Positions 19,066 through 48,147 of a stretch of 64,000 nt of DNA are shown piece after piece (positions within the stretch are counted from its first letter, which is position 1; each line of letters begins with the position of its first letter). Origin of the DNA: Actinomycetes bacterium (GTDB taxonomy: Bacteria; Actinomycetota; Acidimicrobiia; Acidimicrobiales; Palsa-688); NCBI GenBank assembly GCA_021787365.1, contig JAJYMB010000144.1:1-64000 (forward strand). The letters are read 5' to 3'. The notes under the pieces were generated by a model. It did no database searches. It saw only the letters and a program-made list of their open reading frames with translations, and was not told where the DNA came from. Both the position numbers and the translations under genes were made by a program.

Positions 19066-19101
19066 TTGGCCAACTATTATGTAACGGAGTATAATACTTC
19101 A
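19066..19101 (+). promoter_or_regulatory. palindromic promoter of an ATPase gene (leaderless start)
   Basis: TTGGCC (19066-19071), 18-bp spacer, TATAAT (19090-19095), GTG start at 19102. AGTAT-A-ATACT palindrome overlaps the -10. Confidence 0.5.
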
Positions 19102-20544
19102 GTGCATAAGAAGCCGCGGGAGATCTTCGACAGGGAGAGAGAATGGTCAGCGCTCGACGAGTTCGTTTCGGGACCCACACCTCATGCGACGCTCGGGCTC
19201 GTCTACGGCCGGCGACGTCAGGGGAAGACCATGCTTGTCGAGTTCCTCTGCCAAGTGGCGGGCGGGTTCTACTTTTCTGCGCTCGAGCAATCGTCGGCGC
19301 AAAACCTGGTCGCGCTGGGCCAAGCGCTCGCGAGCTACCGAAAGCTCGGGGCGGCATTCGCCTTGAGCGGGTGGGCGGAGGCGGTCGAGCAAGTCCTCGC
19401 TCTCGGGAGTGGCAACGAGCCGCTCCCCATCGTGCTCGACGAGGTACCGTACCTGCTTTCGGTCGCGCCAGAGTTGCCTTCCCTCCTCCAAGCCGCTTTG
19501 AGCCCGGCTCGCCGGCGCCAGTACAGGTCGCGGGTCATCCTGTGCGGCTCTGCCTTCTCGGTCATGGCGAAGCTCACCACGGGCACCGCCCCTCTCCGGG
19601 GACGCGGCTCGGTCGAGCTCCTAGTACACCCGTTTGATTTCCGCCAGAGCGCCGACTTCTGGGGCCTACGGCCGCACTGGGAGCTCGCCTTCTACCACCA
19701 TGCCTTGTGCGGCGGGACGCCGGCCTATCGCGACTACGCGGCATCAGATCTCCCTGACCCCACCGCCGGCCTCGACCGCTGGGTGCTGCGCCACCTTCTC
19801 GACCCGACCAGCGCCTTTTACCGGGAAGGCCGGGTACTCCTCTCGGAGGAACGCTCGCTGGCCGAACCCCAGCTCTACCTTTCAGTGCTGGCTGCAGCTG
19901 CAGCAGGCCGTACCCGACCTTCGGAGATTGCGGCCACTCTCGGGCGCAAAGAAACTTCTTTGAGCCGCGCCCTCGCCGTGCTCGAGGAGACCCAGCTACT
20001 GGCCCGGGTGCCGGACCCTCTTCGCGCCCGGCGTTCCACCTATGAAGTGGCTGAGCCGATAATCCGCTTTTATCAACTTGTCATCGCGCCCAACGAAGCC
20101 CGCTTGGGCCGCCGTTTGGGCCAAGCGGTCTGGGCTGAGGTGGCGGCGACGGTGCGTTCCCGTATTTACGGGCCTCATCTGGAGACACTTGCTCGGGAGT
20201 GGGTCGGCTTCTACGCCTCGCCCGAGACAACCGGTGGCCCGCCGGCCCGAGTCGGGCGTACCGAAGTCCCTTGCCCCGAGCACCGTGTACACCACGAGGT
20301 GGACGTGGTCACCTTGTCTGGCGACCGAGTTGTCAGCCTTGGCGAGGTAAAGGCGGGCAACCAGCCGGTACCTGTGGACGAGCTCTCCCGGCTCGTACAC
20401 CTGCGCGACCTCCTGCCTCGGGCGAGCGGTGCACGCCTGCTCCTGTTCTCCCTGGCCGGCTTCGACGACGACCTCGAGAAAGCCGCCCGCCAGAACGGGG
20501 CCGTCGAACTCGTGGACCTCGAGCGCCTCTACACCGGCTCGTGA
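19102..20544 (+). CDS. ATPase of the archaeal ATPase_2/DUF234 type
   Basis: 'VYGRRRQGKTMLVEFL' P-loop, 'PIVLDEVPYL', 'ILCGSAFSVM', 'GGTPAYRDY'; C-terminal 'HHEVDVVTLSGDRVVSLGEVKAG' is PD-(D/E)XK-like. Confidence 0.85.
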   Translation: MHKKPREIFDREREWSALDEFVSGPTPHATLGLVYGRRRQGKTMLVEFLCQVAGGFYFSALEQSSAQNLVALGQALASYRKLGAAFALSGWAEAVEQVLALGSGNEPLPIVLDEVPYLLSVAPELPSLLQAALSPARRRQYRSRVILCGSAFSVMAKLTTGTAPLRGRGSVELLVHPFDFRQSADFWGLRPHWELAFYHHALCGGTPAYRDYAASDLPDPTAGLDRWVLRHLLDPTSAFYREGRVLLSEERSLAEPQLYLSVLAAAAAGRTRPSEIAATLGRKETSLSRALAVLEETQLLARVPDPLRARRSTYEVAEPIIRFYQLVIAPNEARLGRRLGQAVWAEVAATVRSRIYGPHLETLAREWVGFYASPETTGGPPARVGRTEVPCPEHRVHHEVDVVTLSGDRVVSLGEVKAGNQPVPVDELSRLVHLRDLLPRASGARLLLFSLAGFDDDLEKAARQNGAVELVDLERLYTGS

Positions 20545-45044: not shown

Positions 45045-45398
45045 GGGGGTGACAGGCTTCGACTTTGGCTGTCAAACCGGGAGAAGCGAGCCGTGGTCCC
45101 CGGATGCCACGTAAAACAACTGGGAAAACAACAAATGCCAACACTGGCAACGCGCGTCTAGCGCTGGCTGCTTAATCGCAGCCCGTCCGTCTGGCCCCAG
45201 CCCTGCGGGCCAGGAGCGGGCGTCATAAAGCGGGGCTTACCTTGCAGCTGAGCTAGCCGGCGGCGAGGGAAATTTCAGCTAGCTAGGGCCGGCGGCCGGC
45301 GCCAGTGGCGAGCCGGCGGCTGACGAATTTCACTGGCTGCGCTCGGAGAATCCCCGGCAAGAAGCCGAAGGACGCGGGTTCAATTCCCGCCACCTCCA
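45045..45398 (+). ncRNA. ssrA: tmRNA
   Basis: 5' GGGGGTGACAGGCTTCGAC pairs with 3' CACCTCC; T-arm GCGGGTTCAATTCCCGC; tag reading frame GCC AAC ACT GGC AAC GCG CGT CTA GCG CTG GCT GCT TAA (ANTGNARLALAA). Confidence 0.96.
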
Positions 45399-45706
45399 CG
45401 ACGACGACGACGGGGTCTTAGCGGAATAAAGGCCCCGAGGCTAGCGGAATAAAAGGGGCGAACCGGACCTGGGCGGGATCGACTGGGTGATAGCTGGTCG
45501 GATCCCGTTGAACCTTCCCCCCTCTACCCGGACAGTGGTGCGGCGCTCAGGGCCCTGGCACCGACGCCGCTCGGCCGCGCACCGCCGTCGGCCGCGAGGG
45601 GCGGGTGGTTGGCCAACCCCGGCCCCCTTGGGCGGCAGCATGGGAGCGGGCCCGGGGCGAGGAACGGCCAGGAAATAGACGGCGCATCGTCGGCCCTGCA
45701 CGGGCC

Positions 45707-45751
45707 CTGTGACTTTGCATCCACTGCCACGGCGTTTTTTCATCTACTGAC
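45707..45751 (+). repeat. outer inverted repeat, left arm
   Basis: CTGTGACTTTGCATCCACTGCC (45707-45728) is the exact reverse complement of 47682-47703; followed by tttttcat..actgac, also matched in the right arm. Confidence 0.9.
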
Positions 45752-45920
45752 ACGGGCGCGGAGGCCGTTTTTTCTTTCGTGGCAGTGAGCCCGGGGACCC
45801 GGAGCAGGGAGACCACCAAACCCAGTGCGATGATGCACCGGGTCAGGACCAGTGTCGCTACGTGCATCCAGCGCCCGGTCGTCAACTTCCTGGACACCCC
45901 AAGAGCAGTCAAAGACAGCG

Positions 45921-45954
45921 AGTCTACTCGCGAGTAGTCTACTCCAAAGTAGAC
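45921..45954 (+). repeat. iteron-type inner inverted repeat, left arm
   Basis: AGTCTACTCGCGAGTAGTCTACTCCAAAGTAGAC; matches the reverse complement of 47452-47485 apart from a few spacer positions. Confidence 0.9.
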
Positions 45955-45984
45955 TCGTTGCCCGTCGGGGGAGCCCAGTCGGCC

Positions 45985-47439
45985 CTACGAGCCGAGCGCG
46001 GCCGGTACGTCCACAAGGAGGAGATGGGCGTCTTCGGCGGCTGCTAGTTGCACCTGCTCTGTGTACCCGCTCCGGGCCATCAGGACGGTCGTTACCCGGG
46101 TGGCCAACTTGAACCCCGCCTGTCGCAGAGCGGGCACCTTGTACTCGCGCAGGTCCTTCAGGACCGAGTAGTCAAGGGGCTTGTTCTGCCACTTCGCTTC
46201 GCCCACGACTGTCACTCGGCCTCGTCCGACACCCACGATGTCGATCTCCTCACTGGTACGCTCTTTGTTCCTGCGCAACGAATCGAGGGCAGGTCCCCAC
46301 CAGGCCCCAACTGTGCGGGCCCGGCCCCCGAGGTTGGTACGGGCCCAACTGCGGCACCAGTCCTCGAACTCCGGACCAATGTGCTCGTTGAGGACGGGGG
46401 CGACTTCCCCATCGAAAAGGTCCTCCGCGCGGAGCCCGGTCTCGAGGTCTTCTTGGTAAGGGAACACGAAGCGGAACCAGAACCGGAAAAATGGGTCTTC
46501 GAGGTGCCACAGCCCACCTCGGGTCTCTGGTGGGGCCAAGACGGGCAGCCTGCGGCGGACAATGTGCATGTGCTCGAGCACCGCCAGGTACTTACTGGCC
46601 TGTGCGGTCCCAAGCCGCGCCAGGTCGGTGACCTCTCCGAGTTCCTTGTCGCCAGTTGCTAACTGGGCCAGGATCGCGAAGTACACCTTGGGCTCGCGCA
46701 GTTCCTGCTCGAGGATCGTCCTCGCCTCATCCCACAGAGCACCGTTGCGGTCCAGCACCTTGGTGCAGACCGCCGTCCTAAGGTCGACAAGGCCCAGGTC
46801 GGACAGGTAGCGCGGCATACCGCCGGTGATCGCGTAGCGCTCAAAGGACTCGATAGGGCCCGTGCCTGTCAGGAACGTCTTGGCCTGCTGGTATGGCAGT
46901 GGGCGTAGCTCAAAAGGCCGGAGCCGTCCGTGTAGCGGGCTGCGCTCGGCTTGCAAGGCCTCCATCTGGCCGACAAGGGAGCCACACAGCACCAACTTCA
47001 GTTGGGATTGGTCCCGCTCTTCCTCGAAAACGGCCTGGACAGTGCTGAGGACCTCCTCATCTCCGCTCGCCGTGCCAGGCAGGAGCCAGGGGAATTCGTC
47101 TATGACCGCCAGCAGTTTGAGGGCCCGCCCGGCGCGGAAGAGCACCCTGACCAGAGAGGCCACGTCAGGTAGGTCTGGGCGCACCCCGAGCAGAGGCTCC
47201 AGCTGTTCGGCGAACCTGGTCAATTGGGCCCCGGCCGAGAGCCGATGGGCCACAAGCAGCACCGCGGGCTTGCCGTGAGCGAACTTCCGGAACAACCATG
47301 ACTTGCCAACTCGGCGTCGGCCGAACAGGCTCAGAGGCATCTTGTCCGCACTTGACCACCACTGCTCCAAGACCGATAGCTCGTCTTCACGGTCAAGGAA
47401 CATGTCGATAAGCGCCCAGCGGAACACCTGGTCAGCCAT
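45985..47439 (-). CDS. ATPase of the archaeal ATPase_2/DUF234 type with PD-(D/E)XK-like C-terminus
   Basis: 'FLDREDELSVLEQWW...LFGRRRVGKSWLFRKF' P-loop; 'LLAVIDEFPWLL'; 'LVLCGSLVGQM'; 'GGMPRYL'; 'EEIDIVGVGRGRVTVVGEAKWQNK'. Confidence 0.88.
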   Translation of the reverse strand: MADQVFRWALIDMFLDREDELSVLEQWWSSADKMPLSLFGRRRVGKSWLFRKFAHGKPAVLLVAHRLSAGAQLTRFAEQLEPLLGVRPDLPDVASLVRVLFRAGRALKLLAVIDEFPWLLPGTASGDEEVLSTVQAVFEEERDQSQLKLVLCGSLVGQMEALQAERSPLHGRLRPFELRPLPYQQAKTFLTGTGPIESFERYAITGGMPRYLSDLGLVDLRTAVCTKVLDRNGALWDEARTILEQELREPKVYFAILAQLATGDKELGEVTDLARLGTAQASKYLAVLEHMHIVRRRLPVLAPPETRGGLWHLEDPFFRFWFRFVFPYQEDLETGLRAEDLFDGEVAPVLNEHIGPEFEDWCRSWARTNLGGRARTVGAWWGPALDSLRRNKERTSEEIDIVGVGRGRVTVVGEAKWQNKPLDYSVLKDLREYKVPALRQAGFKLATRVTTVLMARSGYTEQVQLAAAEDAHLLLVDVPAALGS

Positions 47440-47451
47440 GTCCACCTCCGT

Positions 47452-47485
47452 GTCTACTTTAGCGTAGACTACTTCGGAGTAGACT
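47452..47485 (-). repeat. iteron-type inner inverted repeat, right arm
   Basis: Reverse strand AGTCTACTCCGAAGTAGTCTACGCTAAAGTAGAC, 12 bp upstream of the ATPase ATG. Confidence 0.9.
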
Positions 47486-47659
47486 ATGCATGGGTTGGGG
47501 TTGCGCGCAACCACGTTCGCCGTTGGGTGTGCCCGAGACGGCGAGACGGCAGGACGGATCTAGACGGCAGGACGGATCTGCTGAAGCGCACAGGTCCTGG
47601 CAACCAGAACCCTTGCCAGAGCTGAAAAGTGGTTGGCTAGCTGGAGGGCGTCCGCTGCT

Positions 47660-47703
47660 GTCAGTATGAAAAATCTCCTGCGGCAGTGGATGCAAAGTCA
47701 CAG
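47660..47703 (-). repeat. outer inverted repeat, right arm
   Basis: GGCAGTGGATGCAAAGTCACAG (47682-47703), perfect 22-bp reverse complement of 45707-45728, plus gtcagtatgaaaaa. Confidence 0.9.
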
Positions 47704-48147
47704 GCCCGCCCGCCGGAGCGTGTGCAACACGCCGGGGCCCGAGCACCATCGGGGTCGTGGCTCCCCTGAAAAGTGCTCACGCCGCCAGCGGTCGCCGGCT
47801 CGTCCCCCGGGCCTGCTACGAGCGCCCCGGCCGAGGTGACAACCGCGGCCCCCAGTTGGCGGTGGGGGCCCCCTGCCGCAACGGGCAGCATTGGTCATTG
47901 CCACAGCACCGACCGGTGCCGTACCCGGAGCACAAAATGCCGAGCCCTAGGACGGCAGCTCAGGGGCCTCTTCGAAGGTGCCTAGACAGATCGGCGACAG
48001 ACGTTGTGATTGTTTTTCACACTGGCCTCGCAACACCACCATTGACCAGGGAGAACCTTTTTCGCTAGCACCCCACGACGACGACGACACGACGACGACG
48101 CCACTAGGTTTGCGCCCGTGCACGCCACCTTCCTCGGCAGAGACCGG

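What the first reader, a model, noticed from the sequence alone, without database searches (positions are those of the whole stretch)
45707..47703. Single-gene ATPase/nuclease-like module bracketed by nested inverted repeats: candidate undescribed mobile or selfish element
Seen: a 22-bp perfect inverted repeat (CTGTGACTTTGCATCCACTGCC at 45707-45728; reverse complement at 47682-47703), with further matching tttttcat/actgac, encloses a ~2.0-kb segment. Its only convincing gene is a DUF234-type ATPase whose C-terminus has a PD-(D/E)XK-like 'EEIDIVG..RVTVVGEAKW' motif. A second inverted pair lies directly at the gene boundaries. No recognisable transposase is present. The gene organisation resembles a transposable unit in which an ATPase-nuclease may act on, or be mobilised through, its own repeats. 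The mobility idea is inference.
Basis: partly seen in the sequence, partly recalled or inferred. Interest (0 to 1): 0.8.

Follow-up and report, generated by a model that had tools for sequence, protein, structure and literature searches.

The report
ATPase-nuclease gene with private repeat arrays
A single-gene candidate phage-defence ATPase-nuclease sits inside a small transposon-like cassette that lacks its own transposase, and the gene is flanked by its own 15-bp-period repeat arrays; related genes in bacteria and archaea carry the same kind of array in front of their start codons, which suggests that these proteins recognise and control their own genes.

Summary
The outer repeats bound a 1,995-bp insert (45708-47702) with TGTGAC...GTCACA ends, a second copy of the terminal motif 23 bp inward, and a 5-bp direct repeat (GGCCC) directly outside both ends. 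This is the anatomy of IS21-type transposon ends, but no transposase, no second copy and no relative of the ends was found. The only convincing gene (ATG 47439 to 45985, minus strand, 484 aa) is an AAA+ / winged-helix / PD-(D/E)XK protein of Pfam ATPase_2+DUF234, matching PADLOC's untested single-gene defence candidate PDC-S27. Homologues at 80% identity lack the outer repeats, so the outer cassette is only this locus's vehicle. The inner repeats belong to the gene: GTCTAC-N5-AGTAGWCTAC-N5-AGTAGAC on both sides, inverted. Surveying 55 family members, I found a tandem array with a period of exactly 15 bp directly upstream of the start codon (best period in 37/55; controls flat), in Actinobacteriota, haloarchaea, Mesorhizobium, Rhodothermus and phage contigs. 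The sister family PDC-S01 (AAA_14/DUF4143) has its own period of 22-23 bp. Best explanation: the protein binds its private promoter array and represses itself. The downstream inverted array occurs only in this subfamily. Self-mobility is not excluded, but no direct evidence supports it.

The parts
45703..45707 (.). left copy of 5-bp direct repeat GGCCC (candidate target-site duplication)
   Evidence: direct reading; empirical frequency 0.002 for a 5-bp repeat abutting a random segment of this length
45708..45756 (+). left terminal region: L1 TGTGACTTTGCATCCACTGCCACGG and L2 TTTTTTCATCTACTGACACGG, 23 bp apart
   Evidence: left and right ends 86% alike over about 49 bp
45921..45955 (-). downstream array GTCTAC-N5-AGTAGACTAC-N5-AGTAGAC (15-bp period), inverted relative to the upstream array
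45985..47439 (-). ATPase_2/DUF234 gene, 484 aa: AAA+ ATPase, winged helix (about 250-315), PD-(D/E)XK nuclease (about 340-480); PADLOC PDC-S27
47452..47486 (-). upstream array TAGTCTACTCCGAAG|TAGTCTACGCTAAAG|TAGAC, 15-bp period, from -47 to -13 of the start codon; DNA homology with L021 and L023 starts at its first base
47655..47702 (-). right terminal region: R1 TGTGACTTTGCATCCACTGCCGCAG and R2 ATTTTTCATACTGACAG
47703..47707 (.). right copy of GGCCC direct repeat

Best explanation
Two separable things are nested here. (1) Gene: a single-gene AAA+ / winged-helix / PD-(D/E)XK protein of the untested defence-candidate family PDC-S27. It binds the 15-bp-period palindromic array that covers its own promoter and ribosome-site region through its winged helix, side by side as an oligomer, and keeps itself at low expression until some trigger (probably an invader, inferred) switches the ATPase and releases or redirects the nuclease. 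Each family member has its own array sequence, so the recognition is private. In this subfamily a second, inverted array behind the stop codon may let the protein bridge both ends of its gene or shut off transcription from the other side. (2) Vehicle: the gene and its arrays ride as passenger in a non-autonomous cassette with IS21-type ends, which was inserted downstream of the tmRNA gene by a transposase acting in trans and made a 5-bp duplication. Shown: ends, duplication-like repeat, domain content, family-wide array and period, private occurrence. Inferred: DNA binding, autorepression, trigger, trans-mobilisation.
For: Array: best repeat period is exactly 15 bp in 37 of 55 upstream regions (16 bp in 5 more). 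Mean score at 15 is 7.4 against about 3 at every other shift, and regions further upstream and downstream show no peak. Binomial 3e-37 under equal shifts; 32 of 55 reach p<=0.01 at period 15 against 1 of 53 in the far-upstream control. Inverted repeats (p<=0.05) in 22 of 40 promoter regions against 4 of 40 further upstream, 5 of 40 downstream and 11 of 86 control genes. It holds in haloarchaea, Mesorhizobium, Rhodothermus and gut phage contigs. Arrays reach the start codon in several genes, so they overlie the promoter. The array occurs nowhere else in the genome at 0-1 mismatch. Array similarity tracks protein similarity (Mantel p 0.001). Protein: ATPase_2+DUF234, PDC-S27 E 6e-23; the model has AAA+, an H-H-H-strand-strand winged helix and a strand/helix nuclease fold; folds nearest 2qen, then among others Orc1/Cdc6 initiators and TnsC/MuB. 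Vehicle; IS21 ends are two repeats 23 bp apart with a terminal CA (PMC10122671). Sister family PDC-S01 has arrays of period 22-23.
Against: No binding or expression data. After correcting for overall relatedness, the link between array and winged helix is only a trend (partial p about 0.06-0.09), so which domain reads the array is unproven. Some members have no clear array (for example L015, L018, L019). Autorepression alone does not explain the downstream array. No IS21 element with these ends was found, and no empty site could be compared because the region behind the tmRNA gene is not conserved in relatives.
Confidence: 0.66

Rival explanations
1. The gene with its two inverted arrays is itself a mobile or selfish unit: the AAA+/nuclease binds the arrays as terminal repeats, cuts at them and moves the gene, alone or with a host recombinase.
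For: Inverted arrays flank the gene in the window and L025 (array match 25 and 19 against a 99% null of 11) and, with one and a half units downstream, in L021 and L023. DNA homology between the window, L021 and L023, which lie in different contexts, starts at the upstream array. Folds resemble TnsC/MuB, and Tn7's TnsA is also a PD-(D/E)XK nuclease (general knowledge).
Against: No DDE, tyrosine or serine recombinase; no target duplication at the inner ends; most family members, and L024 and L026 within the subfamily, have no downstream array. Homology boundaries at 76-82% DNA identity can also mark the limits of selection. In the 97%-identical pair L021/L022 homology runs 24 bp past the array, and the L022 copy is cut inside the gene next to a tRNA-derived att-like fragment.
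Confidence: 0.12
2. The outer repeats are ends of a Tn7- or Tn402-type element, or of another TGT...ACA family such as IS481, rather than IS21.
For: These families also have TGT...ACA ends and duplications of about 5 bp; Tn7 and Tn402 also have repeated end motifs (general knowledge; ISLxc2 of IS481 starts TGTG).
Against: The 23-bp repeat spacing matches the IS21 structure paper. The genome and its relatives are rich in IS21 genes.
Confidence: 0.2
3. The outer repeats are a chance or assembly feature and the gene was acquired by ordinary horizontal transfer.
For: No second copy anywhere searched.
Against: A perfect 21-bp inverted repeat with a second motif copy at both ends and an abutting 5-bp direct repeat is far beyond chance.
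Confidence: 0.05
4. The arrays are binding sites of an unrelated host regulator, not of the ATPase itself.
For: No binding data exist.
Against: The array sequence differs from gene to gene while the 15-bp period stays, across two domains of life; the window's array occurs nowhere else in its genome.
Confidence: 0.1

Closest known systems
PDC-S27 (PADLOC phage-defence candidate, single gene; Pfam ATPase_2 + DUF234)
   Same: HMM match E 6e-23; ATPase fused to a PD-(D/E)XK domain, as stated for PDC-S27 and PDC-S01 in PMC12988326
   Different: The promoter arrays with a strict 15-bp period do not appear in the papers searched; the subfamily's second, inverted array behind the gene is unusual even within the family
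PDC-S01 (AAA_14 / DUF4143)
   Same: Solitary AAA+ / PD-(D/E)XK gene with its own periodic upstream array
   Different: Period 22-23 bp instead of 15; separate family
IS21-family insertion sequences
   Same: TG...CA ends, two terminal repeats 23 bp apart at the left end, 5-bp duplication-like repeat, about 2 kb
   Different: No istA or istB; passenger gene instead; no autonomous relative with these ends found
Mobile insertion cassettes (MICs, known from IS231-type ends; from own knowledge)
   Same: IS-type inverted repeats around a passenger gene with no transposase
   Different: IS21-type rather than IS4-type ends; no helper IS identified; passenger is an ATPase-nuclease
Archaeal Orc1/Cdc6 initiators bound to origin repeats
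   Same: AAA+ plus winged helix; fold-search neighbours; repeat arrays as binding sites (inferred here)
   Different: Extra PD-(D/E)XK nuclease; the array is the gene's own promoter region, not an origin

Membership tests
PDC-S27 candidate defence gene | match to PADLOC PDC-S27 models | tested here: met
   PDLC04984 E 6e-23, PDLC04985 E 2e-12
PDC-S27 candidate defence gene | AAA+ ATPase fused to PD-(D/E)XK with conserved active residues | tested here: met
PDC-S27 candidate defence gene | anti-phage activity | not testable with these tools
   experimental validation pending for most PDCs according to PMC12988326
IS21-family element | istA and istB genes inside | tested here: not met
IS21-family element | TG...CA ends with two terminal repeats about 23 bp apart | tested here: met
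   left 23 bp, 0 of 2000 shuffles; right 22-24 bp with a small gap; reference PMC10122671
IS21-family element | short target-site duplication | tested here: met
   GGCCC, 5 bp; empty site not available
Mobile insertion cassette | passenger gene between IS ends, no transposase | tested here: met
Mobile insertion cassette | a known helper IS with the same ends | tested here: not met
   none in own genome, 296 class genomes, 396 phylum genomes, plasmids or viral contigs
Mobile insertion cassette | movement in trans | not testable with these tools
   needs an experiment

The most novel reading that the evidence does not exclude
The AAA+ / winged-helix / PD-(D/E)XK families PDC-S27 and PDC-S01 are self-recognising genes defined by private arrays of fixed period (15 or 22-23 bp). 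In this subfamily the paired inverted arrays are working ends, at which the protein cuts or bridges its own gene, making it a minimal selfish or homing-like unit without a classical recombinase.
Probability: 0.12. Interest if true: 0.88.

Novelty: new variant of a known kind. Interest (0 to 1): 0.62.

Why it matters
PDC-S01 is reported as the fourth most common defence system across prokaryotes, and PDC-S27 is abundant in archaea, yet most PDCs lack experimental validation (PMC12988326). A private promoter array of fixed period in both families gives a concrete handle on what these proteins bind and how they are kept silent, and makes their switch directly testable. It also shows such a gene travelling in a transposase-less cassette.

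Tried and rejected
Cognate element for the outer ends: own genome and 60 relatives, 296 class genomes with 3 mismatches, 396 phylum genomes (the weak 17-29-bp hits are chance level), plasmids, viral contigs. Two weak plasmid hits (Cupriavidus; Paraburkholderia, beside an ORF that reads like an IS91-type transposase) were at E=4 and share only about 16-29 bp, so chance. IS21 transposases of 61 genomes: their loci do not carry these ends. IstA/IstB remnants in the spacers: none convincing. Empty site at the tmRNA locus: the region behind tmRNA is not conserved even in the same genus. Empty site for the L022 copy: its left flank matches G027 but the junction is a tRNA-derived att-like fragment of an integrative element, so it gives no clean boundary. 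Winged-helix-specific co-variation with the array: trend only. Phage proteins: no PHROG; no viral-contig relatives. Literature: DUF234, COG1672, PF03008 and DUF4143 hold almost no functional papers in the library.

Full report
WHAT IS THERE. The window is contig C108 of a 4.56-Mb draft genome. A 22-bp perfect inverted repeat lies at the stated coordinates. Read closely, the repeat resolves into a transposon-like insert of 1,995 bp, 45708-47702, with ends TGTGAC...GTCACA, and the direct repeat GGCCC directly outside both ends (45703-45707, 47703-47707). A 5-bp direct repeat abuts a random segment of this length in 0.2% of cases. Inside each end the motif CATCCACTG is followed by a second copy: at the left exactly 23 bp further in (0 of 2000 shuffles reach the score), at the right 22-24 bp with a small gap. 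The cryo-EM paper on IS21 (PMC10122671) describes just this anatomy: two terminal repeats per end, 23 bp apart, and a terminal CA.

THE CASSETTE HAS NO TRANSPOSASE AND NO KNOWN RELATIVE. The only convincing gene inside is the ATPase. The spacers show no convincing IstA or IstB remnant. The ends occur once in the genome and in none of 60 relatives, with no match at up to two mismatches in 296 class genomes and no convincing match in 396 phylum genomes, plasmids or viral contigs. IS21 transposases are common in these genomes but lack these ends. I therefore call it a non-autonomous cassette with IS21-type ends. It works like a mobile insertion cassette (a term from own knowledge), but the helper element is not identified.

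THE GENE. It starts at ATG 47439 and ends at 45985: 484 aa, Pfam ATPase_2 and DUF234, PADLOC candidate PDC-S27 at E 6e-23. AlphaFold (seven sequences, mean pLDDT 75) gives an AAA+ core, a winged helix (about 250-315) and a C-terminal domain with the strand/helix order of PD-(D/E)XK nucleases (the fold name is inference). The nearest solved folds are P. abyssi 2qen, Orc1/Cdc6 initiators, NLR/Apaf-1 ATPases, TnsC and MuB. Walker residues and E398, D400, E414 are invariant in 12 homologues down to 27% identity, and K416 nearly so. [quoted passage not shown]

OUTER AND INNER REPEATS ARE DIFFERENT THINGS. Homologues at 79-81% identity (L021, L022, L023) sit in other contexts and lack the outer repeats. 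The inner repeats stay with the gene. DNA homology between the window and L021 or L023 starts 46-47 bp before the start codon, at the first base of the upstream array, and between L021 and L023 it ends 16 bp after the stop codon, inside the downstream array. In the window both arrays fit GTCTAC-N5-AGTAGWCTAC-N5-AGTAGAC and are inverted relative to each other. L025, 56% identical and from a Gemmatimonadales MAG, also has inverted arrays at both ends (array match 19 against a 99% null of 11; window 25). L021 and L023 keep about one and a half units downstream. L024 and L026 have only the upstream array.

A FAMILY-WIDE ARRAY. I collected 55 ATPase_2/DUF234 genes: 41 from genome searches and 14 from plasmids and phage contigs, most about 25-35% identical to the window protein. 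For the 75 bp before the start codon I scored direct repeats at every period from 8 to 30 bp. Period 15 is the best in 37 genes and 16 in 5; the mean score is 7.4 at 15 and about 3 at every other period; regions 160-240 bp upstream and regions after the stop codon show no peak. At period 15, 32 of 55 reach p<=0.01 against 1 of 53 far-upstream controls. Inverted repeats (p<=0.05) are in 22 of 40 promoter regions against 11 of 86 other genes. Examples: Rhodothermus ATTATACTCCAGAGT|ATAATACTCTCGAGT|ATAAT running to the start codon, Halorussus TACTCTGAAGTATGG|TACTCTAAAGTACGA|TTATCCGAAGTACTA, window TAGTCTACTCCGAAG|TAGTCTACGCTAAAG|TAG. The letters differ from gene to gene while the period stays. The window's array occurs nowhere else in its genome at 0-1 mismatch. 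Array similarity follows protein similarity (Mantel p 0.001), but a specific link to the winged helix is only a trend.

A CONTROL THAT BECAME A SECOND CASE. I meant the sister family AAA_14/DUF4143 (PDC-S01) as a negative control. Its upstream regions show no 15-bp peak but a clear one at 22-23 bp: 11 of 15 genomic loci (three of the 15 are near-identical copies), and mean 7.8 at 22 bp in ten plasmid genes. Fixed, family-specific periods are what side-by-side binding of a protein of fixed shape would give (inference).

MECHANISM. Most likely each protein binds its own array, which in several genes reaches the start codon and must overlie the promoter, and represses itself; a trigger frees the ATPase-nuclease. 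The downstream inverted array of this subfamily may serve looping, block opposing transcription, or be a working end of a mobile unit. No direct evidence for movement through the arrays exists: no recombinase, no inner duplication, and the one 97%-identical pair (L021/L022) has homology running 24 bp past the array, with one copy cut by an integrative-element junction.

NOVELTY. The protein family is known as a candidate defence gene, and IS ends around a passenger are a known idea. The fixed-period private arrays in PDC-S27 and PDC-S01 were not found in the literature searched. That library lacks most subscription papers, so priority is not certain.

Noticed in passing
G000 contig C2 (L037, L038) and window 19066-20544: Four more ATPase_2/DUF234 paralogues in the same genome, three on one 50-kb contig; the window copy at 19066-20544 also matches PDC-S27 and has no clear 15-bp array.
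   Followed up: partly
L170-L199, L200-L209: AAA_14/DUF4143 (PDC-S01) genes carry upstream direct repeats of period 22-23 bp, for example L206 TTTCAATCGGTCGTATCTTGAC x3 and L184 CGTCCGAATAGTAGGG.
   Followed up: partly
L006, L082, L083, L084, L088: A sub-group of DUF234 genes has best period 16 instead of 15, with shorter winged-helix sequences in four of the five.
   Followed up: no
L022:2918-2998 and G027:C126 (L141:3492-3572): A tRNA-derived att-like fragment; in G027 a relaxase-like ORF lies behind it, in L022 a 5'-truncated ATPase directly abuts it: an integrative element site.
   Followed up: partly
window 45045-45399 and behind: tmRNA gene; everything downstream of it differs between this genome and its relatives, suggesting an insertion hot spot.
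   Followed up: partly
L036:1955-3148: ORF that reads like the C-terminal part of a Tn3-type transposase, near a weak (3-mismatch) match to the outer end; the match is probably chance.
   Followed up: no
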